A stretch of DNA of 64,000 bases from Microbacterium sp. (GTDB lineage: Bacteria > Actinomycetota > Actinomycetes > Actinomycetales > Microbacteriaceae). The stretch lies in NCBI RefSeq assembly GCF_017305435.1, contig NZ_JAFKIP010000008.1, forward strand, positions 1 to 64,000, in the 5' to 3' direction. Made by a program: the position numbers and the translations under genes. Positions 22,030 to 52,440 of the stretch are shown here, in pieces (position 1 is the stretch's first letter; each line of letters opens with the position of its first letter). The notes under the pieces were generated by a model, which saw only the letters and a list, made by a program, of their open reading frames with translations, was not told the DNA's origin and ran no database searches.

Positions 22030-22039
22030 GGAGGGCACA

Positions 22040-35823: not shown

Positions 35824-35871
35824 GTCGCGTGCGGGTCAGTGCTGCGCAGCAGCGTTGACCCGATGGACCGT

Positions 35872-35962
35872 GTCCCACTTGTGGTTGTTTCCGCGCCCGG
35901 AAACCGACCATAAGTGGGACACGGTCTGCTGCAAGTGGGACAACTCCTGCCGTAAGTGGGAC
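35872..35962. repeat. Periodic half-site array (AAGTGGGAC family), copy A
   Basis: One inverted half-site GTCCCACTT (35872) is followed by three direct AAGTGGGAC half-sites at 35912, 35933 and 35954, i.e. offsets +40, +61 and +82, the last two steps being exactly 21 bp. The first two half-sites also form a longer imperfect hairpin with GTTTCC/GGAAAC near the loop. The same layout recurs at 52350-52440. It begins 48 bases after the guaA stop. Confidence 0.85.
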
Positions 35963-35979
35963 GAGGCGCGGGGGATGCG

Positions 35980-36013
35980 GAAGGCCCGCCCGGCGGGTGC
36001 CGAGCGGGCCTTC
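35980..36013. terminator. Bidirectional terminator between guaA and the BAX inhibitor gene
   Basis: GAAGGCCCGC (35980-35989) pairs perfectly with GCGGGCCTTC (36004-36013) around a 14-base loop. It sits between convergent genes, 21 bases past the minus-strand stop at 36035. Confidence 0.65.
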
Positions 36014-36034
36014 TGAGCAGGGGATGCCTTCGGC

Positions 36035-36943
36035 TCAGTTGTTGCCGCGGAGGATCGCGATGAGGCGCAGGATCTCGATGTACAGCCAGACGACCGTCAC
36101 CATGATGCCGAAGGCGCCGAGCCAGCCGTACTGACGGGGGGCGCCGTTGCGGACGCCCTGCTGGATCGAGTCGAAGTCGAGGACGAGCGAGTACGCCGCC
36201 ATGATGACCACGAGCACACCGATGATCACACCGAGCGGGATGCCGGCGATCGAGTAGTTCGACAGCATGCCGAACGGGCCGCCCGAGCCGGCCGGGAACG
36301 CGCCGAACATCATCATGACGACGTTGATGAGCGAGAAGACGAGGTAGCCGACCATCGCGATCATGAAGACCTTGGTCGCCTTCGCCGACGCCCGGATCTT
36401 GCCGCTCGCGAAGAGGGCGAGCGTCACGCCGACGACGGAGAGGGTCGCGAGGGTCGCCTGCACGACGATGCCGGGCCACATGTACTCGAAGAACGCCGAG
36501 ATGCCGCCGATGAAGAGACCCTCGAAGGCCGCGTACGCGAAGATCAGCGCGGGGCGCACCTTCTTGCGCGACGTGAAGCTGATGACCATCGCGAGGACGA
36601 ACCCGCCGAGCGCACCGATCATCCACGGCAGGATGCTGACGTTGCTGGGGCTGTCGGGAGTGACGCCGGCCATCGTCCAGATCCAGCCGACGGCGGCCGT
36701 GACGAGGAGGATCGCGAACAGGCCGACCGTCTTGAGGACAGTGTCCTCGACCGTCATGCGGCCGGTGTCGACGGCGCCCGCGGCGGGGGCGGCGAACGCG
36801 CCCTCCAGCTGTGCCTGCGCGGCGAGGTCGGCGGCCTGGTGCGACGAGGCTCCGAACGAGGTCTGGGCAGCCGGCGGGGTCAGCCCGGGGCGCTGTTCTT
36901 GGAACGCGGGGTTGGCGAATGCGGGGTTGCTGCTCGAGGCCAT
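36035..36943 (-). CDS. BAX inhibitor-1/YccA-family membrane protein
   Basis: The product has 302 aa with a Pro/Ala/Gln-rich N-terminal tail of about 75 residues and seven membrane helices. Family marks are EGLFIGGISAFFEYMWPGIV, the acidic LDFDSIQQGV, and the last helix ending LRLIAIL. Bacterial homologues act as pH-sensitive calcium leak proteins or FtsH modulators. The N-terminal tail type (ANPAFQ repeats) is common in actinobacterial members. Confidence 0.9.
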   Translation of the reverse strand: MASSSNPAFANPAFQEQRPGLTPPAAQTSFGASSHQAADLAAQAQLEGAFAAPAAGAVDTGRMTVEDTVLKTVGLFAILLVTAAVGWIWTMAGVTPDSPSNVSILPWMIGALGGFVLAMVISFTSRKKVRPALIFAYAAFEGLFIGGISAFFEYMWPGIVVQATLATLSVVGVTLALFASGKIRASAKATKVFMIAMVGYLVFSLINVVMMMFGAFPAGSGGPFGMLSNYSIAGIPLGVIIGVLVVIMAAYSLVLDFDSIQQGVRNGAPRQYGWLGAFGIMVTVVWLYIEILRLIAILRGNN

Positions 36944-37087
36944 GGTGGTCTCACTCCAATGCGAAGGTTGCCGCGGGGTTTCCTGCGGTATTACAGCCTA
37001 TCGCGCGGGCCGAGAGGGCGGCAGGGCGGCCGCTGTGAGCACGCTATGAAGGGGTGGCTGCGGTGCGGTCGGAGCTCCCCCGATGGC

Positions 37088-37093
37088 TAGCCT
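37088..37093 (+). promoter_or_regulatory. -10 box TAGCCT for the glycerophosphodiesterase gene
   Basis: TAGCCT ends six bases before ATG 37100. No Shine-Dalgarno sequence is evident, so the transcript is probably leaderless. Confidence 0.5.
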
Positions 37094-37099
37094 GGGGGG

Positions 37100-38107
37100 A
37101 TGCCGCGACGTCGTCCCCTCGTGATCGGTCACCGCGGCGCGCCGGGGTACCGGCCCGAGCACACGCGTTCCTCCTACGACCTCGCGCTCGCCCTCGGCGT
37201 CGATGCGGTCGAGCCCGATGTCGTGTTCTCGCGCGACGGCGTGCTCGTCGTGCGGCACGAGAACGAGATCAGCACGACGACGGATGTCGCCACGCGGCCG
37301 GAGTTCGCCGACCGGCGCACCACGAAGACCGTCGACGGCACCGCACACGAGGGCTGGTTCACCGAGGACTTCACGTGGGACGAGCTGCAGACCCTGCGGT
37401 GCCGGGAGCGGCTGCCTGCGCTCCGGCCGGGCAGCGCGAGCTTCGACGACACCCAGCCGCCGCTGCGGCTGGCCGACGTCCTCGCGCTCGTGCGCGCGGC
37501 ATCCCTCGACCAGGGGCGCGAGATCGGCGTCGTCCTCGAGATCAAGCACGCGACGGCATTCGGCGCGCTCGGTTTCGACGTCGCCGGCGCGATCGCGGCG
37601 GAGCTGCGTGCGGCGGATTGGGCCGACGGTGCGCTGCCGCTCGTCATCGAGTCGTTCGAGTCGACCGTGCTCACCCAGGTGCGCGCGCACGGCATCCGCG
37701 GCTCGTACGTGTACCTGCTCGAGGCGTCCGGGCGGCCGTACGACCTCGTGGCGGAGCGGGGTCATCGGGCTCCGACCTACGCCGAGCAGGCGGCACCCGC
37801 TGGTCTCGACGCGCTCGCGGGCGCCGTGGACGGCATCAGCGTCGACAAACGCATGATCCTCGCGCCCGACCGGCTCGGGCGGGCGACCGGTCCCTCCCGC
37901 GTCGTCGACGACGCCCACTCGCGGGGCCTCCGCGTCTTCACCTGGACCTGCCGCCCGGAGAACGCGTTCCTCACCCCGCAGTTCCGATCCGGCCGCGACA
38001 AGGCCGCGTTCGGCGACTACGCCGCGGAGTGGCAGATCATCGCGGATGCCGGGGTCGACGGCGTCTTCGCCGACCACCCCGACCTCGCCCTCGCCTTCTT
38101 CCGCTGA
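37100..38107 (+). CDS. Glycerophosphodiester phosphodiesterase
   Basis: The product is a 335-aa TIM-barrel GDPD. Active-site motifs are IGHRGAPGYRPEHT (catalytic His and Glu), the metal-binding EPDVVFSRDG with a later RHEN (second His), and LEIKHA (Glu/Lys). The C-terminal half contains FTWTCRPEN and GVDGVFADHPD. It hydrolyses glycerophosphodiesters to glycerol-3-phosphate and an alcohol. There is no signal peptide, so it should act in the cytoplasm. The stop codon TGA forms part of the first repeat unit of the 38105 array. Confidence 0.92.
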   Translation: MPRRRPLVIGHRGAPGYRPEHTRSSYDLALALGVDAVEPDVVFSRDGVLVVRHENEISTTTDVATRPEFADRRTTKTVDGTAHEGWFTEDFTWDELQTLRCRERLPALRPGSASFDDTQPPLRLADVLALVRAASLDQGREIGVVLEIKHATAFGALGFDVAGAIAAELRAADWADGALPLVIESFESTVLTQVRAHGIRGSYVYLLEASGRPYDLVAERGHRAPTYAEQAAPAGLDALAGAVDGISVDKRMILAPDRLGRATGPSRVVDDAHSRGLRVFTWTCRPENAFLTPQFRSGRDKAAFGDYAAEWQIIADAGVDGVFADHPDLALAFFR

Positions 38108-38258
38108 GGGTGCCCTCGTTTCGCCTGAGGGTGTCTTCGTTTGACGTGAGGGTGCTCTCCATCAGTGCACCCTCGGCGGGAACGAGTGCACCTTCGGCGG
38201 GAGCGAGTGCACCTTCGGCGGGAACGAGTGCACCCTCGGCGGGAACGAGTGCACGGGA
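38105..38258. repeat. 21-bp periodic array of GAGGGTG half-sites
   Basis: Three direct TGAGGGTG sites start at 38105, 38126 and 38147. Inverted CACCCTC or CACCTTC sites follow at 38168, 38189, 38210 and 38231, with a decayed one at 38252. Every step within each arm is exactly 21 bp. Each unit also holds TCGTTYC/GRAACGA next to the half-site, so both arms are the same 21-bp unit in opposite orientation. Confidence 0.88.
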
Positions 38259-38290
38259 CAGGTGGATGGGCGGTGCGGGAGGGTGAGCCA

Positions 38291-38296
38291 TAGGGT
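38291..38296 (+). promoter_or_regulatory. -10 box TAGGGT for the ABC exporter operon
   Basis: TAGGGT ends six bases before ATG 38303, the leaderless arrangement seen repeatedly here. Confidence 0.5.
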
Positions 38297-38302
38297 GGGG
38301 CC

Positions 38303-39228
38303 ATGGAGTCCCCCGGAATCGTCGCCTCGGGCGTCCGCCGCTCGTTCGGCGCGGTCCACGCCGTCCGCGATGTGAACCTGGCTGCGCGGGCCGGCGCCGT
38401 CACGGGACTCGTCGGCCCGAACGGCTCGGGCAAGACGACGCTGCTGCTGATGCTGGCATCCCTTCTCGCGCCGGATGCCGGCACCGTGCGCATCGGCGGC
38501 ATCGACCCGGTGGCCGATGCCGCCGGGGTGCGCGCGATCACGGGATGGATGCCCGACGCGCTGGGCGCGTGGCCGTCGCTCACGGCGCGCGAGACCCTCG
38601 TGACCACCGGCCGCCTGTACGGCTTCGACCGCCCGCGCGCCGAGCACGGTGCGGCGCGCCTGCTCGACGAGCTCGGGCTGCGCGAACTCGCCGACACCCC
38701 CGCCCGCGTCTTCTCGCGCGGACAGAAGCAGCGTCTGGGGCTCGCCCGCGCCCTCGTCCACGATCCGCGCGTGCTGCTCCTCGACGAGCCGGCCTCGATC
38801 CGCAGGCGCGGGTCGAGCTGCGCACGCTCCTGCGCCGCCTCGCGGCGGAGGGGCGCACGATCCTCATCTCGAGCCACATCCTGTCCGAGCTCGACGAGGT
38901 CGTCGACGACGCCGTCTTCATCGTCGAGGGGGCCACCGTCTCGTCCGACCGGGTCGCCGCGGCGGCGACGCGCCTGCGCACGTGGCGCATCCGCCTCGCA
39001 GACCGCGACGCCGCGGACGCCGTCGCCCCCGTCGCGCAGGCGCTCGGCCTGGATGCCGCGACCATCCCCGTCGATCGCCGCGATCTGCTCGTGTCGATCG
39101 ACTCGGACGCCTCCGCGGCATCCGCGCTCGCCGCCCTCGTCGGTGCGGGCCTGCCCGTCGCGGAGTTCGCGGCGGCGACCGGCCTGCTCGAGCACACGTT
39201 CCTCGACCTCGAAGGAGGCCGCCCGTGA
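38303..39228 (+). pseudogene. ABC exporter ATPase, frameshifted at the D-loop
   Basis: The first part (38303 to about 38800) encodes a normal ABC ATPase: Walker [10 protein letters not shown], signature [13 protein letters not shown], Walker [10 protein letters not shown]. The expected next residues GLDPQ are out of frame; the D-loop onward ([16 protein letters not shown], then H-loop [12 protein letters not shown]) continues in another frame to 39228. Reinserting a second copy of the 7-base word GGCCTCG at 38791-38797 restores one frame of about 310 codons with ...ASGLDPQ. So a 7-bp tandem repeat has lost one unit, or this is an assembly error. The partner permease follows with a 4-base overlap. 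Confidence 0.85.
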
Positions 39229-40316
39229 ACGTCGCACGGATGTGGACCATCGCCCGCCTGGAGCTCGTCCAGCGGCTGCGCGCCGTCTCGTGGTACGTCC
39301 TGCTGGGCGTGTTCGGGCTGATCCTGCTCGGTGTCACGGCGCTGTCCCTGCTCGCCTTCGGCGGGTGGGCGGGCGGCGGTCCCGGCATCTTCTCGGTCGT
39401 CGTCTGCGTCACGCTCCTGCTGGTGCTGCTCGTCTCGCCGACCCTCAGCGGCAACAGCATCAACGGCGATCGGGATGCCGCGACCCTCGCCCCCGTTCAG
39501 GTGACGCTCGCCACGACGGGAGAGATCCTCATCGGCAAGTTCGTCGCCGCGTGGATCACGGGGCTTGCGTTCGTCGCCGTCGCGGCGCCGTTCCTCCTCG
39601 TCACGATGATCGTGGGCGACACGAATCTCGCCGCGGTGGCGGTCTCGCTCGTCATCGTGGTCGTCGAGATCGGCGTCGTGTCCGCGATCGGGGTCGCGCT
39701 CTCCGGCATCCTCGCGCGCCCCCTCTTCTCCGTCGCCGTGACCTACCTCGTCGTCGCGGCGCTCGCCGTCGGCACGCTCATCGGATTCGGCCTGATCGGA
39801 TCGGCGGTCTCCAGCGAGGCGGTGTCGAAGAGCCGCTCGTTCACCTACGACCTGCGGGGTTACCCCGAGTGCACGGATGGCGGCGACGACTGCGAGGGCG
39901 AGCTCGACCGGATGGCCTGCGGCGAGTGGGAGACCTCGACCTACCGGGTGCCGCGCTTCGATCGGGTGTGGTGGATGCTCTCGTCCAACCCGTTCGTGAT
40001 CCTCGCCGATGCGACGCCCACGACGTTCGACGACAGCGGCAACCCCGACGACGTGTTCGGGTGGATCAAGGCCTCGGTGCGGTCCGCGCAGATCCCGCCC
40101 GACCTGGCGCCGGTCTGGGACGGCTGCGACCCCGCCGTGTACGACGGGGGAGGCTCGGACTACCGCACCCCCGAGGAGACGATCGCGCAGACGGTGCCGA
40201 GCTGGTTCGTCGGCCTCGCCGTCCAGATCGCCTTCGCCGCGCTGCTGCTGTGGTGGGCATGGGCGCGTACGCGCACGCCCTCGCGGACGCTGCCGCCCGG
40301 GACGCGGATCGCCTGA
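39225..40316 (+). CDS. ABC-2 type exporter permease
   Basis: The product is a 363-aa membrane protein with six helices; the fold and [19 protein letters not shown] segment after helix 2 are typical of ABC-2 permeases with an early coupling helix. A large extracytoplasmic loop of about 130 residues before the last helix contains five cysteines ([25 protein letters not shown]) that could form disulfides. GTG 39225 follows AAGGAGG. The cargo is unknown, and activity depends on whether the frameshifted ATPase is functional. Confidence 0.85.
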
Positions 40317-40345
40317 ACCGGCCCCGCCCGCACCTGCCGCGGCTC

Positions 40346-40365
40346 GGATGAGGATCCTCTCATCC
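40346..40365 (+). terminator. Hairpin after the ABC permease
   Basis: GGATGAG pairs with CTCATCC around GATCCT, 30 bases past the permease stop. It is short and has no T-tract. Confidence 0.4.
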
Positions 40366-40402
40366 TGATGCGTGAGGGTTTCGCGGGCATGCAGGGGATG
40401 CA

Positions 40403-40408
40403 TAGCCT
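40403..40408 (+). promoter_or_regulatory. Possible -10 box TAGCCT for the subtilase gene
   Basis: TAGCCT lies 60 bases before the TTG start, leaving room for a leader with an AAAGG ribosome site at about 40456. Only the -10 element is visible. Confidence 0.3.
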
Positions 40409-40468
40409 CCTTTCAGCCACTTCCTACCCCCGGAGTGCGCTCTCCCCTGCACGAAAGGCGGACCCCTC

Positions 40469-43400
40469 TTGCAACGACGCATCCTGGCGGTGATCGGAGC
40501 CACCCTCCTCACCCTCCCCGCATCCGCGGCCCTCGCGGCGACGCCCGACGACGATTCGGGGGCGCGGTTCGCCGCGTCCTCGTCGCGCGGCGCGATCGAC
40601 TCTTCCTTCACGGCGGGCGCGATCGGCCCCGACGGCCACGTCACCGTCGTCATCGAGATGGAGGGCGACCCCGTCGCAGTCGTCGAGGCCGAGAGCGGCC
40701 GCGAGCTCAGCGAGGGCGAGCGCGACGACGTCAAGTCGACGCTCACCGACGCGCAGAGCGAGGTCGTCGAGACGGTGGAGAGCGCGGGCGGCGAGGTCCA
40801 GGCGCAGATGGCGTCGGCGTACAACGGAGTCCAGGCATCCGTTCCGGCGGACCAACTGGATGCCGTGGCCGAGCTCCCCGGCGTCGTCGCCGTGCACCCC
40901 GTGCGCCGCTACTCGATCGACAACGCGGTCTCGGTGCCGTTCCTCGGCGTGCCCGAGGTCTGGCAGAACACCGGCTACACGGGTCAGAACGTCAAGGTCG
41001 GCATCATCGACACGGGCATCGACTACACCCACGCGACGTTCGGCGGCCCCGGCACCCCCGAGGCCTACGAGGCCGCGCACGCGGCGAGCGATCAGCCCGC
41101 CGACCCGGCCCTGTACGGCCCCGACGCCCCGCGGGTGAAGGGCGGCGTCGATCTCGTCGGCGACGACTACAACGCCGACCCCGCGAGCGCGAGCTACCAG
41201 CCCGTGCCGCACCCCGACGCGAACCCGCTCGACTGCCAGGGCCACGGCTCGCACGTCGCCGGGACGGCAGGCGGCTCCGGCGTCCTCGCCGACGGCGCGG
41301 GGTACACGGGTCCGTACGACGCCTCGACACCGTCGAACGCGTTCCGCGTCGGCCCCGGCGTCGCGCCGCAGGCCGACCTGTACGCCATCCGCGTCTTCGG
41401 CTGCGACGGCTCCACCGACGTCGTCGTGCCCGCCCTGGACTGGGCGGTCGACAACGGCATGGACGTCGTGAACCTCTCCCTCGGCTCGTCCTTCGGTCGC
41501 GGAGACGACCCGGATGCCGTCGCGGCGGCCAACGCCGTCGGCGCGGGCGTCGTGGTCGTGGCATCCGCCGGCAACGCCGGGCACAACCCGTACCTGACCG
41601 GGTCGCCCGGGTCGGGCGACGGCGTCATCGCGGTGTCGGCGGTCGACAGCGCCGAGGGCTTTCCCGGGGCGACCGTGACGGTCGACGGTCAGGCGGTCGA
41701 GGCGATCAACGCCAACGGCGCGTCCCTCGAGGGCATCGGCGATCTCGCCATCGTGCGTCTGGTCGACGACCCCGCCACGCCGGAGAACGAGGCCATCGGC
41801 TGCTCGGTGGAGGCGTACACGAAGGCCGGCGTGACCGCGGGCGCGGGCCAGCTGGCCGTCTCCGAGCGCGGTTCCTGTGCGCGCGTCGCGAAGGCGATCT
41901 ACGCGCAGCAGGCGGGGGCTGCCGCCGCACTCATGGTCAACTCGACCGACGACCTGCCCCCGTACGAGGGTCAGATCACCGAGAACGCCGACACGGGCGA
42001 GGCGTATCTCGTCACGATCCCGTTCCTCGGGGTGCGCTCCTCGAACGGCGCGCTGTTCACCACCGGCGCCACCGCGTCGTTCGCGGCGGCGCAGATCGCC
42101 AATCCCGGGTTCCGCGCGTACGCGTCGTTCACCTCGTCCGGACCTCGTTCGGGCGACAGCGCGGTGAGCCCCGACGTCGCGGCGCCGGGCGTCTCCATCT
42201 CGTCGGCCGCGGTCGGCTCGGGGAACGGCGCGGCGATCCTCTCCGGCACGTCGATGGCGTCGCCGCACGTCGCGGGCGTGGCGGCCCTGTCGGCGCAGGC
42301 GCATCCGGAGTGGAGTGCGCCGCAGCTCGCGGCATCCGTCGTCTCCACCGCCGACCCCGACAAGGTCGTCGGCGAGAGCATCACGATCGGCGGGCTCGGA
42401 CTCGTGGACGCCGCGCAGGCCGTCGCGACGACGGTCACCGCGACCGGCGACGCGTTCCGCACCGAGAGCGGCTGGGCGCGCGAGGCCGCGCTGAGCTTCG
42501 GCTTCCAGGAGTCGCCGCTCGGCTTCGGCGGCATCAAGACGGTGACGGTCCGCAACGACGGCCCCGCCCCGGTGACCTACGACGTCTCCACCACGCCGTC
42601 GGCGCAGTCGCTGAAGGCGAGGGTGTTCCTCTCCTCGTCGTCGGTCACCGTCGCGCCGGGAAGCTCCTCGAAGGTCCTCCTCACGGTGGGCGCCGCGGCG
42701 AAGGACGTGCCGAGCTCGGTCGGGGGAGCCGACCAGTTCGCCTACTACGAGATCTCGGGCGACATCACGTTGACGTCGGCCGACTCGACCCTCCGCGTGC
42801 CGTACCTGCTCGTGCCGCGCTCGTCGAGCACGGTCTCGAGCGCGACGTCGGCGCTCTTCACGAAGAAGCAGAAGGTCGCCGACGGGGCGAAGAAGATCTC
42901 GCTGTGGAACCTGTTCGGGGCGCAGCCGAGCGCCGGCGCCGACGTCTACACGTGGGGGCTGTCGGACGACAAGGATGCCTCGGCATCCCTCGCCGATACC
43001 GGCTACGACCTGCGTGCCGCCGGCGTGCAGTCGTTCGGCAGCGGTGATGATGCGCTCGCCGTGTTCGCCCTGAACATGCACAAGCGCTGGTCGAACGCGG
43101 CGAGCAACGAGTACGACGTCGTGATCGACGCCGACCGCGATGGCACGGCGGACTGGATCGTGCTGTCGGCGGACTCGGGCGCGGTGCGGGCGGGAGACAC
43201 GAACGGGCTCGCCGAGGTGTTCGTCGTGAACGCTAAGACGGGCGCGCTCGGCGCGAGCGGCTTCCTCACGCAGGCGCCGACCGACTCGTCGACGATGCTC
43301 CTGCCGGTCCACCTCGCCGATCTCGGCATCACCGGGGCATTCGACTACACCGTGCAGACCTACGGCGTGAACGGCGGAACGGATGCCGCGTCGGGCTGGG

Positions 43401-43591: not shown

Positions 43592-43598
43592 CCCCGGC

Positions 43599-43639
43599 CC
43601 CGCCGGACGCCGACGGCGGCGCCCCCGGCGTCCGGCGGG
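43599..43639. terminator. Terminator between the subtilase and the lipoprotein gene
   Basis: A 13-bp perfect stem (43599-43611 with 43627-43639) lies 8 bases after the subtilase stop and serves convergent genes. Confidence 0.7.
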
Positions 43640-43655
43640 TGCGGCGCCCCCGGGC

Positions 43656-44120: not shown

Positions 44121-44217
44121 GGCGGCCTCCTCGACTCGGATGCCCCGATGGTAGGCGCGCGACCTGCGAAACGGCGGGGAATGAGGGAGAGTATGCGAGA
44201 CAGCGGAGGGGGAGCGG

Positions 44218-44943
44218 ATGCCGAGTGTGATCACGGCCGTCGTGTGCGTCGTGCTTCTGAACGTGGCGGCCGCGACGCTCATCCTGCTGCGCTCGCGGGT
44301 ATACGGCGTGCGTCTCTATCGGCCGATGCTCCTCAACGTCGTGCTGTCGTTCCTGCCCGTGCTCCTTGCGATCATCGGCGTCGCCGGGCTTCTGCTGCTC
44401 GTGCCGGCGATTCAGCTCGCCGGGGCATCCGCGCCGGTCCTCCTCTGGACGTATGTCGGCCTCGCGACGCTCGCGTGGCTGCTCTTCTTCCCGAATTCGG
44501 TGTACCTCATCACGGAGCTGAACCTCAGCCACCGGGAGGACGGGCCGACACCCGTCCCGCTCTGGTACGACATCGTGCAGACCCTGACGCTGACCGTCTC
44601 GGGAATAGCGAACGCGGTCCTCAGCCTCGCGATCGTCCAGACCGTTCTGATCGCCCTCTTCATCGATCCGGCGCGCCCGACGGTGCCCGCGTCGAGCTGG
44701 GTGTTCGCCGCGACCGTCATCGTGCTGGGCGCGGTGGGCGTGTACCTCGGGCGCTACCTGCGGTTCAACAGCTGGGACGTGCGGCATCCGGTCGGCATGC
44801 TCCGCAAGCTCGGAGCGCATTTCCGCGTGCGCGGGAAGGCCCTCGAGGCGTTCGCGTTCGTCCTCACGCACGCGCTCCTGATCACGCTCATCTACGTGCC
44901 GGTGTATGCGCTGGCGGCCGCCGCGCTGTTCCCCGCAGGGTGA
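44218..44943 (+). CDS. DUF1361 membrane protein
   Basis: The product is a 241-aa protein with six or seven membrane helices. DUF1361 signatures are LFFPNSVYLITEL with following LSH, PLWYDIVQ, and GRYLRFNSWDV. Function unknown. ATG 44218 follows a GGAGGGGGAG purine tract. Confidence 0.87.
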   Translation: MPSVITAVVCVVLLNVAAATLILLRSRVYGVRLYRPMLLNVVLSFLPVLLAIIGVAGLLLLVPAIQLAGASAPVLLWTYVGLATLAWLLFFPNSVYLITELNLSHREDGPTPVPLWYDIVQTLTLTVSGIANAVLSLAIVQTVLIALFIDPARPTVPASSWVFAATVIVLGAVGVYLGRYLRFNSWDVRHPVGMLRKLGAHFRVRGKALEAFAFVLTHALLITLIYVPVYALAAAALFPAG

Positions 44944-44967
44944 TCGCCGCGCGCGGCGCGGGCGGAG

Positions 44968-45531
44968 TCAGTCCCAGTCGAGGTAGTCCTCGATGAACCA
45001 TGACGTCTCGCCCGGATGCGTCGCGGGGAAGAGGTGTCCGGCGCCCTCGACCTGCTTGAGGCTCGCGATGGCGGGGGCGGATGCCACGAGCCGCTCGCTC
45101 ACGGAGAGAGGGGTCACCTCGTCGTCGGTGCCGTGGATGACGAGCACCGGGATGTCGTCCACGAGCTCGCCGTCGACGTCTTCGGGGGCCATCAAGAGGA
45201 CACCGTTGACGCGGTCGTGGTGCCCGCGGGCGACGGCGCGGGCGACCGTGCTGCCGAAGCCGTGGCCGCCGATCCACGAGTGGTCGAGGCCCACGGCATC
45301 CATGACGTCGACGACGGTCTGTGCGAGGGCGTCGACGCTGTCGGCCGTGTCGAGCGGGGCGAGGCGCAGGACGCGGAAATCCTCTTCGACGAGGATCGAG
45401 GCGAGCGTGCCGAGGGAGGCGATGTCCTGCCCCGTTTCGGGGATCAGGACGAGGGCGGGCCCGGCGCCCTCATCGATGTAGGCGATGGCGCGGCCATCGG
45501 GCTCGAACGTCGAGATCGTCGCGGTCGTCAT
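44968..45531 (-). CDS. Alpha/beta hydrolase-fold protein lacking the nucleophile
   Basis: The product is a 187-aa compact alpha/beta hydrolase. The nucleophile elbow, normally G-x-S-x-G, reads GGHGFGS, so the catalytic Ser position is Gly. The acidic (GTDDEVTP) and His (GAGHLFP) positions remain. It is shorter than usual (about 260 aa) and lacks a cap. It is probably non-catalytic or uses another mechanism. Overlaps no neighbour; it faces the DUF1361 gene. Confidence 0.78.
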   Translation of the reverse strand: MTTATISTFEPDGRAIAYIDEGAGPALVLIPETGQDIASLGTLASILVEEDFRVLRLAPLDTADSVDALAQTVVDVMDAVGLDHSWIGGHGFGSTVARAVARGHHDRVNGVLLMAPEDVDGELVDDIPVLVIHGTDDEVTPLSVSERLVASAPAIASLKQVEGAGHLFPATHPGETSWFIEDYLDWD

Positions 45532-45589
45532 GGCATCCAGTCTCCCATGCGGCCGCCGGAGCGACGCGACGGCGACTCGTGCGGAGGGG

Positions 45590-46273
45590 TCAGTTGCTGA
45601 GGAAGAGCACGCTGATCAGCATGGCGATGATGAACGTGCTGAAGGCGTAAGCGATGTAGGTCTGGCCCGTGACGACCGAGCGTGCCCGCGTGGTCAGGAT
45701 GTTGACGTCCGAAGAGGAGAACGTCGTCGCGAGCTGCGCGGCGAGGTAGTAGTAGTCGGCGAACACGGGGTGATCGCTCTCCATGCCGGGGAACTCCAGC
45801 GCCTTCTCCTGCGTGTTCAGCCGGGCATAGTGCACCGCGTACGCGGTGACGGTGACCAACCACGCGGTGACGACGACGGCGAAGCTCAGGGCGTTGGCCA
45901 GGGCGCTGTCCAGCAGGCCGGGGAGGATCAGGACCAGGGCGACGGCGAGCACGGCCAGCACCGCCCACTGCGCCGCCATCGCGGGGATCGACAGGCGCCG
46001 GCCCGGTGCGTTCGTCGCGGCCAGCCACGCTCGGAGCGTCTCTGCGTCGGCTCTGCCGAAGGTGGCCTGACTGAGGATGAGAAAGCTCAGCGAGTAGGCG
46101 ATCCAGAAGACGAAGGTCGTGAGCGCGACGGTGTCGGGCGTGAACGGAGCGGGCGCGAGCGAGGCGTAGGTGAGGAGCGCGACGGCGGCCACGACCGCAG
46201 CAATGGCGAGGGAGACGAGATTGCGGGCGCCTTCCCGAGCCAGGCGAGGTGTGGATCGCGCATCCGTCGGCAT
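45590..46273 (-). CDS. DUF1345 membrane protein
   Basis: The product is a 227-aa protein with five membrane helices. The conserved family block FADYYYLAAQLATTFSSSDV followed by N-I-x-T-x-x-x-R lies before the last helix. Function unknown. Its start is 25 bases from the left att-like repeat, so the cassette inserted immediately upstream of this gene. Confidence 0.87.
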   Translation of the reverse strand: MPTDARSTPRLAREGARNLVSLAIAAVVAAVALLTYASLAPAPFTPDTVALTTFVFWIAYSLSFLILSQATFGRADAETLRAWLAATNAPGRRLSIPAMAAQWAVLAVLAVALVLILPGLLDSALANALSFAVVVTAWLVTVTAYAVHYARLNTQEKALEFPGMESDHPVFADYYYLAAQLATTFSSSDVNILTTRARSVVTGQTYIAYAFSTFIIAMLISVLFLSN

Positions 46274-46297
46274 GACCGAATCGTACGACCGGGGTGA

Positions 46298-46332
46298 GCC
46301 GACAGGAGGTGGACGCGACGGCGGGAGTCGAA
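46298..46332. repeat. Left att-like 35-bp direct repeat of a tRNA-targeted cassette
   Basis: These 35 bases are identical to 47648-47682, which contains the T-arm, acceptor 3' strand and CCA end of the tRNA-like gene. Here the match stops inside the T-loop, and the rest of a tRNA is missing. This is what a displaced tRNA 3' fragment left by site-specific integration looks like. Confidence 0.8.
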
Positions 46333-46519
46333 TTCCCGGATGCCCTCAGTGCACCTTTGAGCAGCTCGCTACGTGCATCGTCCGAAGTAGTGGCAGGTGG
46401 TCTGTTCGTGAGCTGACGAGAGCAGCTCGGCATCGGCGTGCTGTGTTGGAGGGGGGTATCGGTGTGCTCTTGTATCTGGCATATTCCTGGGGGCAGGGAT
46501 TCACATACGGAACGGACGA

Positions 46520-47137
46520 ATGATGCGAAACGTAAAGATGCTCGGACTCGCCGCCATGTCGGCGTTTGTCATGATGTTGGCGGTCCCGGCGAGCGCCAGC
46601 GCGGCGCAGGTTGAACCGTCGCCACCGGACGACGTTGCTGCGCAAATCGCGAGTGATCCCGGGCTGCGATACGTCTCCGTGGCAGAAGCGGAAGAACAGT
46701 ATGGTTTCGACACGAACGCTCAAGATGCCGACGAGCCAGCTGCGGCCGAGCCCGCCATAACGCCTCTGTGGTCGTGGTGGGGATGTGACTGGCACGGACA
46801 AGCCGACTACCCGCACGTGACTAACAACGAGGCCTCCGTGCACGGGTACTGGGTCAAGGATGGGGGCGACTGTCCAGAGACAGGAACCGTCACCGTCGAA
46901 CTGCAGGCTCTGGGGTGCAGCAATCTTGGCTGCGCGTGGATCACGCAGGAGACTGACTCCGTCACGGGCGTCAAGCCAGGATCAGGAACGGGGCGATGGG
47001 CGACGCCGCACAAGGCGTGTGCGAACAACAACGCCACTGGTTGGCGCGGCCGTGTTGACACCGCGCTGACAGACTTTTACGACCCGTTTGGCTGGGACGA
47101 TGGACCTGCCATGGACCGGAACTGCTCTCCGGCATGA
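46520..47137 (+). CDS. Secreted cysteine-rich protein of a small cassette
   Basis: The product is a 205-aa protein of no family I recognise. A signal peptide (residues 1 to about 30, ending ASASAA) is followed by an acidic linker (60-80) and a Trp- and Cys-rich domain (WSWWGCDWHGQ, GDCPETG, GCSNLGCAW, KACANNN, final NCSPA). At least six cysteines suggest a disulfide-stabilised extracellular protein. Codon use is less GC-rich than in neighbours. The stop overlaps the next gene's ATG (ATGA), so the two are co-translated. It could be a secreted effector or a surface protein. Confidence 0.75.
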   Translation: MMRNVKMLGLAAMSAFVMMLAVPASASAAQVEPSPPDDVAAQIASDPGLRYVSVAEAEEQYGFDTNAQDADEPAAAEPAITPLWSWWGCDWHGQADYPHVTNNEASVHGYWVKDGGDCPETGTVTVELQALGCSNLGCAWITQETDSVTGVKPGSGTGRWATPHKACANNNATGWRGRVDTALTDFYDPFGWDDGPAMDRNCSPA

Positions 47138-47610
47138 GTGGAGAACACGGGCAGGTGCGGTACGTCGCTCTGCATCCATCCCTTGAGCATCGTGATGATG
47201 TGCAGCGGCGGACCTTCGAACTGTCGGACCTTTCGGTCGCAGGGTTGGTCATTGTCTGCGAGCTTGACGACCCTCTTATCGGCCGCTCCCGCCCCACCAT
47301 GAGCATGAAGATCACGCAGTACTTGCGGATGTCAGATGATTCGATGGTGCGCCTCGACATGGATCGCGGCGTGAGCTCGTTCAAACACGGGCACGTCAGA
47401 CCTGTGAGCTGGAAGCGCGATGCGCAGGACGTCATCAACGAGGTTCTGACTCTCGTTCGGGCAGATGGGATCGGCGGGGACTCCTTTCCTTGGGAGGAGT
47501 ATGTCGAAGCGGGACGACTGCGCGGCATCGAGGTGGACCTGGAAACGATGAAGGGGCTCCCGCACACCGTGCTCATCTCGGACGAATTGACGGAGATCTT
47601 TGAGTTCTGA
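47134..47610 (+). CDS. Cytoplasmic partner protein of the small cassette, unknown family
   Basis: The product is a 158-aa soluble protein with no signal peptide and no motif I recognise. It has a mixed alpha/beta composition, a His/Lys-rich centre (SFKHGHVRPVSWK) and an acidic C-terminus ending ELTEIFEF. Translational coupling to a secreted Cys-rich protein raises the possibility of an immunity or chaperone role; this is inference. It ends 38 bases before the right att-like repeat. Confidence 0.65.
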   Translation: MSGEHGQVRYVALHPSLEHRDDVQRRTFELSDLSVAGLVIVCELDDPLIGRSRPTMSMKITQYLRMSDDSMVRLDMDRGVSSFKHGHVRPVSWKRDAQDVINEVLTLVRADGIGGDSFPWEEYVEAGRLRGIEVDLETMKGLPHTVLISDELTEIFEF

Positions 47611-47647
47611 TCTTTCGCGAAGGAGGATTCCTCGCCTCCAGCGGCGG

Positions 47648-47682
47648 GCCGACAGGAGGTGGACGCGACGGCGGGAGTCGAA
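47648..47682. repeat. Right att-like 35-bp direct repeat, inside the tRNA-like gene
   Basis: Exact copy of 46298-46332. It covers the CCA end, acceptor 3' strand and half of the T-arm of the tRNA-like gene on the minus strand and continues 12 bases beyond its 3' end. The two copies are 1350 bp apart. Confidence 0.8.
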
Positions 47683-47735
47683 CCCGCAACGCAACCGGGT
47701 ATGAACCGGTGCCCGGGACCACCCGGATCGCCGCG
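47660..47735 (-). tRNA. tRNA-Met(CAT)-like gene with an atypical D-arm
   Basis: Read on the minus strand: acceptor CGCGGCG pairs with CGTCGCG (one G-T), anticodon stem ACCGG/CCGGT with loop TTCATAC (anticodon CAT), T-arm GCGGG/CCCGC with loop TTCGACT, discriminator T and encoded CCA. The D-arm is CCGG-GTGGTC-CCGG, with only six loop bases and without the usual A14 and A21, and position 8 is A. So it is clearly tRNA-shaped but may be a degenerate or special tRNA. It is the integration site of the 1.35-kb cassette. Confidence 0.6.
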
Positions 47736-47847
47736 ATGCGTTCCCGCCGGCTCATCCGCGGGGGATGCCGGTGGGGACTCTGCCACGCTAAGCGGCCCCG
47801 CCCACATCCGCCAGGACTGTGTCGGGCCGTTGCGACATGAGACGCCG

Positions 47848-47869
47848 TGTGACGGGGCGGCCCGTCACA
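47848..47869 (-). terminator. Hairpin overlapping the yccF stop
   Basis: TGTGACGGG pairs with CCCGTCACA around GCGG. It lies at the 3' end of the minus-strand yccF gene and includes its stop codon. Confidence 0.5.
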
Positions 47870-48263
47870 GGGTGCGGTCGAAGGCGCCCTGGCGCGTCAA
47901 GACGATGTCCTTGCCGAGCGGCATGAGGGAGATCGGGATCATCTTGAAGTCCGCGATCGCCATCGGGATGCCGATGATCGTGAGGCACAGTGCGATGCCG
48001 CTCGCGAGGTGGCCGAGCGCGAGCCACCAGCCCGCGAGAATCACCCACACGACGTTGCCGAGGAACGAGCCGACGCCGGCCGTCGGCTTCGGCACGATCG
48101 TCCGCCCGAACGGCCAGATGACGTAGCCCGCCGTGCGGAACGATGCGATCGCCCACGGGATCGTGATGATCGGGATGCACAGGACGACCCCCGCGACGAC
48201 GTAGCCGACGAAGAGCCAGAACCCCGCGAAGAGGATCCAGATGATGTTGAGGATCGTGCGCAT
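47865..48263 (-). CDS. YccF-domain membrane protein
   Basis: The product is a 132-aa protein with two YccF repeats, each a pair of membrane helices around G-x-x-L-C/P-I-x-x-I-P: ILNIIWILFAGFWL then VLCIPIITIPWAIASFR, and VVWVILAGWWLALGH then ALCLTIIGIPMAIADFK. YccF proteins are inner-membrane proteins of unknown function. It is the last gene of the minus-strand PspC cluster. Confidence 0.9.
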   Translation of the reverse strand: MRTILNIIWILFAGFWLFVGYVVAGVVLCIPIITIPWAIASFRTAGYVIWPFGRTIVPKPTAGVGSFLGNVVWVILAGWWLALGHLASGIALCLTIIGIPMAIADFKMIPISLMPLGKDIVLTRQGAFDRTL

Positions 48264-48298
48264 GGCATCCATTCTCGCGTGAACAGGTCGCGGCGGAG

Positions 48299-48640
48299 CT
48301 ATGCGGATCGGTGGGCGGCGACTGCGCGCTGCGCGCGGCGCAGCAGGCCGACGAGCCCCGTGACGAGCAGCATGCCGCCCACGGCCAGCACGCCGTAGCC
48401 GATCGCGGTGGCGGGCGTGAGCGCTTGCGCCCAGGCCATGAGCTCGTCGACGCGGTCGGTGCCTGACGCGATCCAGATGCCGGCACCGGCGAGGGCCGCG
48501 AGCACGAGCCCCCACACGATCCCGGCCCAGCGGGTGCGGGGGCGCAGTGCGGGAGCGGCGGGCGTCCCGAGTGGCTCGAGGGTGGTCTCGTCCGCGCCGA
48601 CGAGGTCGTCGAGGGGCAGAGTCTGGTCGTCGTCGGTCAT
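48299..48640 (-). CDS. Small two-helix membrane protein
   Basis: The product has 113 aa: an acidic N-terminus (MTDDDQTLPLDDLVGADE) and two membrane helices (WAGIVWGLVLAALAGAGIW and AIGYGVLAVGGMLLVTGLVGLL) with an Arg-rich tail. It overlaps the PspC gene by 4 bases. Its role is unknown; such proteins often accompany actinobacterial PspC genes. Confidence 0.72.
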   Translation of the reverse strand: MTDDDQTLPLDDLVGADETTLEPLGTPAAPALRPRTRWAGIVWGLVLAALAGAGIWIASGTDRVDELMAWAQALTPATAIGYGVLAVGGMLLVTGLVGLLRRAQRAVAAHRSA

Positions 48641-50235
48641 CGTGCGTCCTCCGCTGTATCCCACCGCATGATCTGGATCCACCCCGACTGCTGATCGAGC
48701 ACAAGGCTCTGGTCGGTGACGGTCTCGCCCTCGCCGACGGAGGCTTGGAGGGTCGCGACGATGCGTCGGCCGCCGTCGGGAGTGGTGCTGCTCACGGCGC
48801 TGGGGAGGTCGATCACGTCCTGCGACTCACCGACGGTCGTGTTCGTGTAGGTCGTCCACGCGGCCCCCCGGATGTCCAGGTGCACCGTGACATCCGGGTC
48901 CAGCCAGATCGTCGTCCCGCCGGAACCCTTCTGGACGTAGATCGCCTCTGTGGGGGCGTCGGCGGCTCTGAGCGTGATGTCGAGGTCGCCCCACGGCTGG
49001 ACGAAGGGCGCGGATGCCGGCCAGCGCTCGGGCCCGGCGTTGGAGATGCCGTAGCTCCCGAGGTGCATCGCGTGCAGCGTCGGTGCCGCGGTCGCCGCGA
49101 CTCCGCCGGCGAGCAGCACGAGGGTCATGAACGCGAGGAAGCCGCTGCGGCGCCGCACGATGCCGGCGACGACCATCCCGAGCGCCACGAGGAGCGCCGC
49201 GACGAACAGGCCCAGCGCCCCGCCGAGCTCCGTTTCCGAGGTCACGGCGACGAGAGCGCCCGCGACCACCGCGATGCCGAGCACCGTTGCGACGTAGGCG
49301 AACGGCGTGCGCGGCGCGGTGAGACGACGGAGGCGGCGGCGCTCCGCGGCCTCCGCCGTGAAGGCCGCGGCGTGGGCGTGCCGCTCGCGGCGCGCCTGGT
49401 CGCGGGCGGCACGTGCGGCATCCTGCTGCTGGCGACGCCAGGCGTCATCCTGCGCCTTCCAGGCGGCGTGCTGCTCACGCCACGCGGCGTACTCGTCGGT
49501 GTCGGGGCCAGGGCCAGGGCCGGGGACGGGAGTGGGAGTGGAGGGGACGGATGCCGCGAAGCCGGCGACATCCGCCCCCTCATCGTCCGCGGGCGCGGCA
49601 TCCGGACCCGAACCGGAAGCGGCGGCGGACGAGTCCGGGGTCGCGGAGTCAGCGGAAGCCGTTCGCTGCTCCGGCGCGACGGCCGGGTCGGTGGCGCGCG
49701 GCGCGGAGCGGGCAGCACGCACGATGAGGAAGACGAGTCCGCCGACCACGGCGAGGCCGACGATGAAGGCGAGTGCCAGCACGGCGGCGAGGCCGCCGTT
49801 GGACCCGGCGACGGTCCACATCGTCGGCAGTCCGAGGAGGAACGGTACCGGCGCCGGGACGAGCCCGAGCACGGCGAACGCCACGATCCCGAGCTGCGCC
49901 GGCAGGAGGACGCCGCGCAGCGCGTATTGCAGCGGGATGTCGCCGTCGAGATCGGGCAGCAGCGCCCACGCGATCGCGTAGAGGAACAGCACGGGGAAGC
50001 CGAACAGCCCGATCACGACCAGGATGCCTCGGACGATCAGCGGGTCGATGCGCAGTCGCGCGGCGATCCCCGCCGCGACGCCGCCGATCCACCCGTCGCC
50101 GCGGACGACGCCGAGCCCTGCCGTCCACTCGAAGAACCGGTCGCCGAACGGAGCGCGTGCCGGGGCGGCGGATGTCGGAGCGGCGGATGCCGGCGGGGCG
50201 GGTGGGGGCCCGGGATCGGCCAGGGGGGTGGTCAT
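48637..50235 (-). CDS. PspC-domain envelope-stress membrane protein
   Basis: The product has 532 aa. The N-terminal PspC domain (about 30-95: GDGWIGGVAAGIAARLRIDPLIVRGILV) is followed by several helices, a charged Gln/Arg-rich coiled coil (about 230-300), four more helices and an extracytoplasmic C-terminal domain of beta type similar to toast-rack/LiaF-like modules (IYVQKGSGGTTIWLDPDV). It is divergent from the histidine kinase, which also has a PspC domain, and probably senses or relays membrane stress to it. Confidence 0.87.
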   Translation of the reverse strand: MTTPLADPGPPPAPPASAAPTSAAPARAPFGDRFFEWTAGLGVVRGDGWIGGVAAGIAARLRIDPLIVRGILVVIGLFGFPVLFLYAIAWALLPDLDGDIPLQYALRGVLLPAQLGIVAFAVLGLVPAPVPFLLGLPTMWTVAGSNGGLAAVLALAFIVGLAVVGGLVFLIVRAARSAPRATDPAVAPEQRTASADSATPDSSAAASGSGPDAAPADDEGADVAGFAASVPSTPTPVPGPGPGPDTDEYAAWREQHAAWKAQDDAWRRQQQDAARAARDQARRERHAHAAAFTAEAAERRRLRRLTAPRTPFAYVATVLGIAVVAGALVAVTSETELGGALGLFVAALLVALGMVVAGIVRRRSGFLAFMTLVLLAGGVAATAAPTLHAMHLGSYGISNAGPERWPASAPFVQPWGDLDITLRAADAPTEAIYVQKGSGGTTIWLDPDVTVHLDIRGAAWTTYTNTTVGESQDVIDLPSAVSSTTPDGGRRIVATLQASVGEGETVTDQSLVLDQQSGWIQIMRWDTAEDAR

Positions 50236-50342
50236 GCATCGATCCTCGCCCGGCCCGCGCGCCGTTCGCCATCGGGTGAACCCCTGAGCGCACCCTGATT
50301 CCTCGTGCCGGGTCTGGGGGTCTGCGCCCCCGGTGTGGTGTG

Positions 50343-51617
50343 ATGGGCGGCATGTCCACCTCCGCCGCGTCGCCGGCCGCGCCGCGGCCCGCCCGCCCTG
50401 CTCGGCCGGCCCGCCCACCCCGCCCGCCGCGCGCGGCACCCGCGGTGCGCCCGGCGCTGCAGCGCGCCCGGGAGTGCGCCGTCTCCGGCGTCTCGGTGGG
50501 AATCGCGCGGCACCTGGGGGCGCCGGTCTGGGCAGTGCGCGCGCTGTTCGTCGTGCTGGCCCCGTTCGGAGGTGCCGGCATCCTGCTCTACCTGTGGTGC
50601 TGGGCGTTCATGCCGGGGGAGGCGGGCGAGAGCGCTCCGACGCGGTCGTGGCCCGTCGCATGGATCCTGCTCGCGGTGGCAGCCGTGGCGTTCGCCGTCG
50701 CGCTGCAGACGCTCGGCGAGCTCGCGAACTGGGGTTCGGCGCCGGCCCTCCGGGCGCGCGTCCTCGGCGCCGTCGTCGTCGCCGCCGCATCCGCGACCGC
50801 CGCGGGGCTGTGGGCGGGGTTCGTCGACCGCGCCGACACGGCGCGCGGCCCGCGTCATGCGGTGTGGACGCGCGCGAGCGCGATCGTGCTCCTGGTCGGC
50901 TGCCTCATCGCCGGGGTCTCGGTGGGAGGCGAACCGCTCGCCACGCTGATCGGCACCCTCGTCCCGACCGCCGGCATCCTTCTCGTGCTCTCGTCGACGC
51001 TCGTGGAGCGGTTCCGCGAGTTGTCCGGCGAACGCGTCAAGCGCATCCGCGAAGAGCAGCGCGCCGAGATGGCCGCGCACCTGCACGACTCCGTGCTGCA
51101 GACGCTCGCCCTCATCCAGAACCGTGCCGGAGCGTCGAGCGAGGCCGCGCGGCTGGCCCGCGCTCAGGAGCGGGAGCTCCGTGCGTGGCTCTACGACGGC
51201 GATCAGCCGGCGGACAGTGACCTGGCCACCGACCTGCGCGACTACGCCGGTGCGCTCGAACTCGACTATCCCGCGCGCATCGACGTCGTCTCGGCAGGGC
51301 TCTCGACCGAGCGCGCGAGCGGCGAGCTCGCCGCCGCCGCCCGTGAGGCGATGCTGAACGCCGCACGCCACGCCGGCGGCGAGGTCTCGGTCTACATCGA
51401 AGGCGGCCCGCAGGGCGTCGACGTGTTCATCCGCGACCGCGGCGCCGGGTTCGACGTCGACGCCGTGCCGGAGGATCGCCTCGGCATCCGCCAGTCCATC
51501 GCGGGACGTATGCGGCGTGTCGGCGGCGCGGCGACCGTCAGCTCGACGCCGGCGGGCACCGAGGTGCACCTCCACTACGCGACCCCCGCACCGAGCTACG
51601 GAGCCGATCGTGGCTGA
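50343..51617 (+). CDS. PspC-domain sensor histidine kinase
   Basis: The product has 424 aa. After a Pro/Arg/Ala-rich tail comes a PspC domain (about 45-100), four to six membrane helices, and a HisKA_3-type dimerisation helix with phospho-acceptor His248 (AAHLHDSVLQTLALIQ). The HATPase domain has EAMLNAARHAGG (N box), FIRDRGAGFD (G1) and DRLGIRQSI (G2). It matches the LiaS/DesK-like class. Start ATG 50343 or 50352; no clear ribosome site. The stop overlaps the regulator start. Confidence 0.88.
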   Translation: MGGMSTSAASPAAPRPARPARPARPPRPPRAAPAVRPALQRARECAVSGVSVGIARHLGAPVWAVRALFVVLAPFGGAGILLYLWCWAFMPGEAGESAPTRSWPVAWILLAVAAVAFAVALQTLGELANWGSAPALRARVLGAVVVAAASATAAGLWAGFVDRADTARGPRHAVWTRASAIVLLVGCLIAGVSVGGEPLATLIGTLVPTAGILLVLSSTLVERFRELSGERVKRIREEQRAEMAAHLHDSVLQTLALIQNRAGASSEAARLARAQERELRAWLYDGDQPADSDLATDLRDYAGALELDYPARIDVVSAGLSTERASGELAAAAREAMLNAARHAGGEVSVYIEGGPQGVDVFIRDRGAGFDVDAVPEDRLGIRQSIAGRMRRVGGAATVSSTPAGTEVHLHYATPAPSYGADRG

Positions 51618-52269
51618 ACCTGTCCGGGTCGTGATCGTCGACGACCACTCGATCTTCCGCTCGGGGCTGCGCAGCGACCTCGATGAGACCGTCGCGGTGG
51701 TCGGCGAAGCCGCCGACGTCCCCGCGGCGGTGGTCGTCATCGCCGAGACCCGGCCCGACGTGGTGCTGCTCGACGTGCATCTGCCGGGCGGCTCCGGCCA
51801 CGACGCGACGGGCGGCGAGGAGGTCATCCGCGCGTCGGCGGGGGTGACGACGCGGTTCCTCGCGCTGAGTGTGTCGGATGCCGCGGAAGACGTCGTCCGC
51901 GTCATCCGCGCGGGCGCCCGCGGCTACATCACGAAGGGGTCATCCGGTATCGAGGTGAGCAGGGCCGTGCACGCGGTCGCCGGCGGTGACGCGGTGTTCT
52001 CTCCGCGTCTCGCGGGATTCGTGCTCGACGCGTTCGGCGCCGTCGCGGGGGAGACGGCGGCGGCCGGAGACGAGCTCGATCGCCTCTCCGCGCGTGAGCA
52101 GGAGGTCATGCGCCTCATCGCGCGCGGCTACGCCTACAAAGAGGTCGCCGCCGCGCTGTTCATCTCGATCAAGACGGTCGAGACGCACGTCTCGGCGGTG
52201 CTGCGAAAGCTCCAGTTGTCGTCGCGGCACGAGCTGACGGCCTGGGCGAGCGAGCGCCGGCTGCTGTAG
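51610..52269 (+). CDS. NarL/LuxR-family response regulator
   Basis: The product has 219 aa: receiver domain with acidic pocket VIVDDH and phospho-acceptor Asp55 (VVLLDVHLP), a slightly expanded loop after it (GGSGHDATGG), and a C-terminal LuxR helix-turn-helix (LSAREQEVMRLIARGYAYKEVAAALFIS then IKTVETHVSAVLRKL). GTG 51610 overlaps the kinase stop by 8 bases. Its likely targets are the divergent PspC/YccF genes and itself. Confidence 0.93.
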   Translation: MAEPVRVVIVDDHSIFRSGLRSDLDETVAVVGEAADVPAAVVVIAETRPDVVLLDVHLPGGSGHDATGGEEVIRASAGVTTRFLALSVSDAAEDVVRVIRAGARGYITKGSSGIEVSRAVHAVAGGDAVFSPRLAGFVLDAFGAVAGETAAAGDELDRLSAREQEVMRLIARGYAYKEVAAALFISIKTVETHVSAVLRKLQLSSRHELTAWASERRLL

Positions 52270-52349
52270 CGCCGGCTGCTGTAGCGCCGCCGGTTGTGAC
52301 CCGCCTGGCGGCATCCGTCTCGCTGGAGTCCGTCGCGCCCACCGGGCAT

Positions 52350-52440
52350 GTCCCACTTATGGCTGTTTCGGCGGCGCTGAGCCAGCCACTTATGGGACAA
52401 CGCCCGCCCCAAGTGGGACGACGCCTGCCCGGAGTGGGAC
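52350..52440. repeat. Periodic half-site array (AAGTGGGAC family), copy B
   Basis: GTCCCACTT (52350) is followed by TTATGGGAC (52390), AAGTGGGAC (52411) and GAGTGGGAC (52432): offsets +40, +61 and +82, identical to copy A at 35872. Linker sequences differ, apart from CACTTATGGCTGTTTC resembling the first arm of copy A. It begins 81 bases after the response regulator stop. Confidence 0.85.

What the first reader, a model, noticed from the sequence alone, without database searches (positions are those of the whole stretch)
35872..52440. Two intergenic arrays with identical half-site geometry, 16.5 kb apart
Seen: at 35872 and at 52350 one GTCCCACTT is followed by AAGTGGGAC-like half-sites at exactly +40, +61 and +82. 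Linkers are largely unrelated and individual half-sites have mutated, yet spacing is kept to the base. Steps of 21 bp equal two helical turns, so a protein binding one DNA face, or a conserved RNA fold, is more likely than chance. Both lie just after the 3' end of a + strand gene (guaA; response regulator).
Basis: partly seen in the sequence, partly recalled or inferred. Interest (0 to 1): 0.82.

Follow-up and report, generated by a model that had tools for sequence, protein, structure and literature searches.

The report
Nuclease gene with scattered matching repeats
The two arrays are copies of a scattered family of double-arm DNA sites that also bracket one nuclease gene elsewhere in the genome; related nuclease genes are often bracketed by site families of their own, which looks like an independently evolved counterpart of the known REP repeat and RAYT enzyme partnership.

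Summary
Both arrays belong to a family of about 25 dispersed copies in this genome: a 51-bp dyad of two 21-bp arms (TGTCCCA-n5-GG-YY-G...) plus further units at 21-bp steps. Arms vary independently within a copy (365 of 504 positions match, 363 expected), so this is a DNA-binding dyad rather than an RNA hairpin.

Following the copies led to one ~300-aa gene bracketed by such dyads on both flanks in the 7 best hits of 7. Its product is modelled as an AbiEi-like DNA-binding half plus a Vsr/DUF559/MTES_1575-type nuclease, putative active-site residues nearly invariant. A second clade has another dyad on both flanks in 6 of 6 loci with both flanks held; that motif occurs 31-138 times in its 7 genomes and 0-2 times in 13 others. 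Bracketing: 28 of 45 nuclease loci, 3 of 80 control genes; also elsewhere in the class. No RAYT-type transposase in 21 genomes.

Best reading: a REP/RAYT-like nuclease-repeat partnership with an unrelated enzyme. Association is shown, binding well supported, cutting and spreading inferred. The window also holds a clade-2 dyad at 56031-56090.

The parts
35871..35921 (+). clade-1 dyad, copy A: two inverted 21-bp arms around a 9-bp centre
   Evidence: (best match of the model, 102 bits; it is also one of the rows the model was built from)
35933..35962 (+). two further outward units of copy A, at 21-bp steps
52349..52399 (+). clade-1 dyad, copy B
52411..52440 (+). two further outward units of copy B (the second has 1 mismatch)
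56031..56090 (.). clade-2 dyad (CGAGTGTCCAAGACACGCGGA...TCCGCGTGTCTTGGACACTCG), same type as the repeats that bracket the second nuclease at G000:C4:247848-248726

Best explanation
The arrays are non-autonomous copies of a nuclease-cognate repeat. One nuclease gene in the same genome (contig C5, about 108058-108972, outside the window) is bracketed by two of these elements in inverted orientation, with the extra units pointing outward. Its protein has an AbiEi-like DNA-binding half (residues about 4-190) and a Vsr/DUF559-type nuclease half (about 195-300). Proposed mechanism: (1) each DNA-binding half recognises one 21-bp arm, so two monomers sit face to face on the 51-bp dyad, and further monomers line up on one DNA face on the outward units (inferred, well supported); (2) the nuclease nicks or cuts at or near the dyad (inferred from near-invariant putative active-site residues and purifying selection); (3) repair, recombination or template copying at such breaks duplicates, deletes, flips and occasionally relocates elements, mostly into gaps that are not divergent promoters, where they are tolerated (outcomes seen: tandem copy change, presence/absence, gene inversion in place; the causal role of the nuclease is inferred). 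Several clades of the nuclease carry a repeat family of their own, so enzyme and site appear to co-evolve. It works like REP/RAYT, with an unrelated enzyme and a double-stranded dyad instead of a foldback hairpin.
Against: No binding or cutting has been measured. Clade-1-type dyads also occur in G011, G012 and G023 (10, 8 and 13 model rows), which show no close clade-1 gene; they may be relics. The 8th best hit (G015, nearly the E-value of the 7th) has no TGTCCCA dyads but another palindrome on one flank. In the tree the TGTCCCA genes lie in a group of 13 rows that also holds 6 genes with other or no recognised repeats, and the clade-2 group of 7 has only 92/76 support. The clade labels were set after one search was seen. 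The presence/absence case shows no clean target duplication and could be a loss. Orthologous copies are shared by close species, and the clade-1 and clade-2 genes keep the same neighbours in 6 and 7 genomes, so movement is slow. 17 of 45 nuclease loci and 9 of 25 class-wide loci lack a strong shared flank. Genomes and loci in these counts are related, not independent. Copies were found with a motif model, which inflates conservation.
Confidence: 0.6

Rival explanations
1. Domesticated binding sites: the protein binds the dyads for a host function (gene-end insulation, transcription termination, chromosome folding) and no longer moves them.
For: Intergenic, 0 of 24 between divergent genes; long residence of the nuclease at one locus under purifying selection; orthologous copies shared by close species.
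Against: Patchy presence (22 of 58 genomes searched at E<=0.01) and copy turnover between close species argue against an essential structural role; the putative nuclease active site is kept.
Confidence: 0.2
2. Operators of an AbiEi-like autoregulator, the dispersed copies being its regulon.
For: AbiEi and Rv2827c bind inverted repeats in their own promoters (passages); one dyad lies about 95-110 bp upstream of the nuclease start in G000 and G008.
Against: Of 24 copies none lies between divergent genes and 12 lie between convergent genes; a second dyad lies downstream of the nuclease gene; no AbiEii-like toxin was recognised among the neighbours listed (no family scan of neighbours was run).
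Confidence: 0.07
3. RNA hairpins or bidirectional terminators.
For: The two window copies fold well on either strand (z -3.0 to -5.8); many lie at gene 3' ends.
Against: No covariation; columns 13-16 of the stem are unpaired in 7-9 of 15 rows; the direct 21-bp units do not pair with each other; no Rfam match in the window.
Confidence: 0.05
4. Miniature relics of a conventional transposon, the nuclease being a passenger.
For: TG...CA outer ends; inverted bracketing of a gene.
Against: No Y1 transposase in 21 genomes; different nuclease clades carry different repeats, so the nuclease is the constant partner; no target duplication in the one case read. DDE transposases were not surveyed.
Confidence: 0.05

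Closest known systems
REP/REPIN repeats with RAYT (Y1 tyrosine transposases)
   Same: Enzyme gene bracketed by two inverted repeats, cognate dispersed copies, repeat type following enzyme phylogeny (Nunvar 2010, PMC2817692, abstract and passages).
   Different: The enzyme is an AbiEi-like plus Vsr/DUF559-type protein, with no Y1_Tnp match in 21 genomes; the site is a long dyad with independent arms and iterated 21-bp units, not a foldback REP.
AbiEi antitoxins of type IV AbiE systems (S. agalactiae AbiEi, Rv2827c)
   Different: Fused to a nuclease domain; sites dispersed in the genome; no toxin partner recognised.
EDxHD homing endonuclease I-Bth0305I and Vsr
   Different: No intron; the gene keeps its presumed target sites intact on both sides; H248 aligns to W in 3r3p.
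REase_MTES_1575 (PF18741) and DUF559 (PF04480) domains
   Same: Nuclease half matches: 38 and 24 of 45 members at E<=0.01; the MTES_1575 domain was named as a Vsr-type REase in PMC3710099 (passages).
   Different: No repeat association found in the paper searches run (listed under Tried and rejected).

Membership tests
REP/RAYT | Y1 (HUH) tyrosine transposase PF01797 present | tested here: not met
   0 of 21 genomes; the same search rings in 5 of 14 control genomes including E. coli
REP/RAYT | enzyme gene bracketed by two inverted cognate repeats | tested here: met
   clade 1: 7 of 7 best hits; clade 2: 6 of 6 loci with both flanks held
REP/RAYT | palindrome kept by complementary changes (foldback) | tested here: inconclusive
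   within own genome arms are independent; between species the inner arms change yet stay palindromic, seen by eye in a few loci
REP/RAYT | repeat type follows enzyme phylogeny | tested here: met
   two repeat types split by a 100/99 branch, with the limits told in the Against line
AbiE type IV toxin-antitoxin | AbiEi-like fold | tested here: met
AbiE type IV toxin-antitoxin | adjacent AbiEii nucleotidyltransferase toxin | tested here: inconclusive
   neighbouring frames were listed for own, G008, G034 and G031 and read by eye; no family scan of neighbours
EDxHD/Vsr-like endonuclease | catalytic-domain fold | tested here: met
EDxHD/Vsr-like endonuclease | the named E-D-H-D residues | tested here: inconclusive
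   E198, D231, H248, D258 nearly invariant, but H248 aligns to W in 3r3p; correspondence of the others not shown
Homing endonuclease | gene inserted in and destroying its own target | tested here: inconclusive
   dyads intact on both sides of the gene, but the true cleavage target is unknown
Structured RNA or terminator | covarying stem or Rfam match | tested here: not met
MITE or insertion sequence | target-site duplication at an occupied/empty pair | tested here: inconclusive
   one site examined in three genomes, no clean duplication, gap diverged

The most novel reading that the evidence does not exclude
A class-wide, undescribed kind of genome symbiont in these bacteria: vertically inherited AbiEi-fold/Vsr-type nucleases, many clades of which maintain and re-seed a private family of dyad sites in gene-end gaps, a system convergent with REP/RAYT but built on double-stranded recognition and a restriction-type nuclease.
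Probability: 0.45. Interest if true: 0.9.

Novelty: new variant of a known kind. Interest (0 to 1): 0.8.

Why it matters
If right, the repeat-enzyme partnership known from RAYT has arisen again with unrelated chemistry, which makes it testable what such partnerships have in common. It would give a concrete role to a common group of proteins with DUF559 or MTES_1575 nuclease domains (74 of 148 class genomes at E<=1e-30). It also offers natural protein-DNA specificity pairs, because different clades appear to have changed their site.

Tried and rejected
RNA structure: the window copies fold well, but no covariation and no Rfam match at gathering score; rejected.

RAYT: no Y1 transposase in 21 genomes; rejected.

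Plasmid or phage spread of the nuclease: 1 of 72,556 plasmid records at E<=1e-20 (a 754-kb Arthrobacter record, 38% identity) and no phage record at E<=1e-10; not supported.

Clean insertion site: three G016/G019 locus pairs aligned (two copies against one; two copies in G019 where G016 keeps one degenerate copy; one tangled array). One presence/absence site has diverged junctions. For the guaA gap of the window, the match table of 38 genomes shows the two flanking genes matched separately in the relatives; no junction was read.

Wasted: the pattern had the wrong spacing (N34/N12 instead of N37/N13). One search used the only genome-contig scan; its single Streptomyces match is taken as chance and was not followed. 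Alignment A1 (15 rows) holds one dyad twice, read on both strands (L025), so 14 distinct copies trained the model. The 400-bp flank test missed the G006 clade-2 locus (24.3 bits), which one search shows to be bracketed.

Literature (open-access PMC only; listings and starts of abstracts seen, passages of four papers read): searches listed no paper tying DUF559/MTES_1575 nucleases to dispersed repeats; (the half-site letters) gave 215 papers, 20 listed, which look incidental; two searches served for AbiEi and EDxHD. One search matched 1,757 papers and showed 15, one search matched 99 and showed 12, one search matched 60 and showed 15, so those were not exhausted. Subscription papers and most preprints were not searched.

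The name Microbacterium is inferred, not tested: the Pfam domain is named after a M. testaceum gene and the best plasmid match of the window is to M. sediminis. The genome itself is unnamed.

Full report
OBSERVATION. Both arrays are as described. Copy A is exact at all four half-sites. Copy B has 3 mismatches at +40 and 1 at +82. In the whole genome the two half-site patterns occur 4 and 21 times against 0 for the reversed controls, and 20 of the 21 direct steps are exactly 21 bp. A covariance model from 15 rows (14 distinct dyads) finds 51 rows in this genome at E<=0.1. Merging both-strand readings by hand leaves 25 distinct places plus one weak partial one; 150 of 1968 first-look candidates were scored, so this may be a lower bound.

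ANATOMY. The core is a 51-bp dyad: two 21-bp arms TGTCCCAnnnnnGGYYGnTTn facing each other around 9 bp, usually followed on one side (sometimes both) by further units at 21-bp steps. In 24 of the 25 copies (48 arms; the 25th was not fetched) positions 2-6, 14 and 17 are identical in 48 of 48 arms, positions 7 and 13 in 47, while positions 8-12, 15, 16, 18 and 21 are mixed. The search used a motif model, so this is partly ascertainment. The two arms of a copy are no more alike than arms taken from different copies (365 of 504 matches against 363.2, sd 8.6; p = 0.44), and paired columns do not covary. A hairpin needs pairing within a copy; two protein half-sites do not. So the palindrome is read as a DNA-binding dyad.

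PLACEMENT. None of the 24 copies lies inside a frame by a composition-based ORF call: 12 convergent, 12 tandem, 0 divergent.

DISTRIBUTION. With the model, 22 of 58 genomes match at E<=0.01 (stricter filters). Among the 35 genomes of the genus, 11 have 7 or more rows (G000, G006, G008, G009, G011, G012, G016, G019, G023, G032, G034). In several other species the outer TGTCCCACTT stays while the inner arm changes and remains palindromic (by eye).

THE PARTNER. Two inverted elements about 1.1 kb apart bracket one gene in this genome, in G008, in G034 and, between other neighbours, in G031. tblastn with its product finds relatives in 37 of 58 genomes at E<=1e-20. The 7 best hits (G000, G008, G019, G034, G009, G006, G031) have TGTCCCA dyads on both flanks. 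Two more, a partial match (G032) and one at a contig end (G016), have a dyad on one flank. The 8th best hit (G015) has none. Exceptions the other way: G011, G012 and G023 carry such dyads without a close clade-1 gene.

OTHER CLADES, OTHER REPEATS. More distant paralogs are often bracketed by different sequences, for example GAGTGTCCAAGACACGCGGA, GTGTCCGGGTTG and CGCTCAGGTATGAGTTGTGGTCGG. The clade-2 motif GTGTCCANGACACGC (1 mismatch allowed) has 31, 52, 75, 122, 71, 60 and 138 matches in G000, G006, G007, G009, G019, G023 and G026, and 0-2 in the 13 other genomes searched (20 of the 35 genus genomes). Those 7 genomes hold the clade-2 gene. At its 7 loci the motif (up to 2 mismatches) is on both flanks in the 6 with both flanks held and on the one flank held of the 7th (G026); 6 other nuclease loci checked have it on neither flank. 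Not every paralog of the 13 other genomes was placed on the tree; those left out are at most 38% identical to the clade-1 query apart from one short fragment. The third motif has 11 matches in G033 and 0-1 in 21 others. In a tree of 49 proteins the two labelled groups are split by a branch with 100/99 support. The clade-2 rows form a group of exactly 7 (92/76), and the TGTCCCA rows lie in a group of 13 that includes 6 with other or no recognised repeats. Labels were set.

GENERAL TEST. Best shared sequence between left and right 400-bp flanks: at least 30 bits at 28 of 45 nuclease loci (5 of 50 lacked flank), 3 of 80 control genes of 200-450 aa from ten 20-kb stretches, 4 of 150 mismatched nuclease flank pairs; medians 34.2, 20.3 and 20.3 bits, Mann-Whitney p 2.7e-13 for nuclease against control. 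The strongest control reads as an IS3-type transposase gene, a fair positive control (the IS3 name is recalled). The loci are related, so p is nominal. Class-wide, 74 of 148 genomes have the family at E<=1e-30. Of 28 loci tested, 3 lacked flank and 16 of 25 reach 30 bits; one of these (G039) was already in the first set, and several come from one genus.

DYNAMICS. The clade-1 gene shares neighbours in six genomes, but in G034, G009 and G006 it is inverted relative to G000, G008 and G019, as recombination between the bracketing inverted elements would give. In the close pair G016/G019 one locus has two copies against one. In G016 one gap carries an element where G019 and G023 have none, flanks 90-94% identical, without a clean target duplication. 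Other copies are shared at orthologous places by close species. The gene is nearly absent from plasmid and phage records. This points to slow turnover and vertical inheritance rather than a busy transposon.

READING. Shown: family, geometry, site-like arms, bracketing, clade-specific repeats, near-invariant residues, turnover. Inferred: that this protein binds these sites, that it cuts them, and that cutting drives copying. The closest functional parallel is REP/RAYT (abstract and passages of PMC2817692), but the defining enzyme is absent, so it is not filed there.

Noticed in passing
window 56031-56090: A dyad of the second (clade-2) family lies in the same window, about 3.6 kb after copy B; its cognate nuclease is at G000:C4:247848-248726.
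   Followed up: yes
window about 20000-22619: A stretch of 2620 bp is 99.9% identical to a Microbacterium sediminis plasmid (NZ_CP038257.1) where a heavy-metal P-type ATPase and an ArsR-type regulator are annotated, suggesting recent transfer.
   Followed up: no
L035, L040, L042, L051, just before the dyad: The short motif GGCATCC stands directly before several dyads; GGCATCC/GGATGCC occurs 122 times in the window (no shuffle control). Meaning unknown.
   Followed up: no
G033:C1:144605-145898: A second interval of about 1.3 kb is bracketed by the G033 repeat family but does not hold either of the two nuclease hits.
   Followed up: no
L068 2150-4305 (G008:C1 about 86149-88304): Clade-1 elements in inverted orientation bracket a 552-aa reading frame that does not look like the nuclease.
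   Followed up: no
L117 about 1113-1455: A 74-bp tandem array (units about 91-96% alike) lies beside a nuclease gene in G011.
   Followed up: no
L204, L205, L206, L208, L210, L213 flanks: Nuclease flanks in other families of the class share a core GATCATG (or its reverse complement) inside otherwise different dyads.
   Followed up: partly
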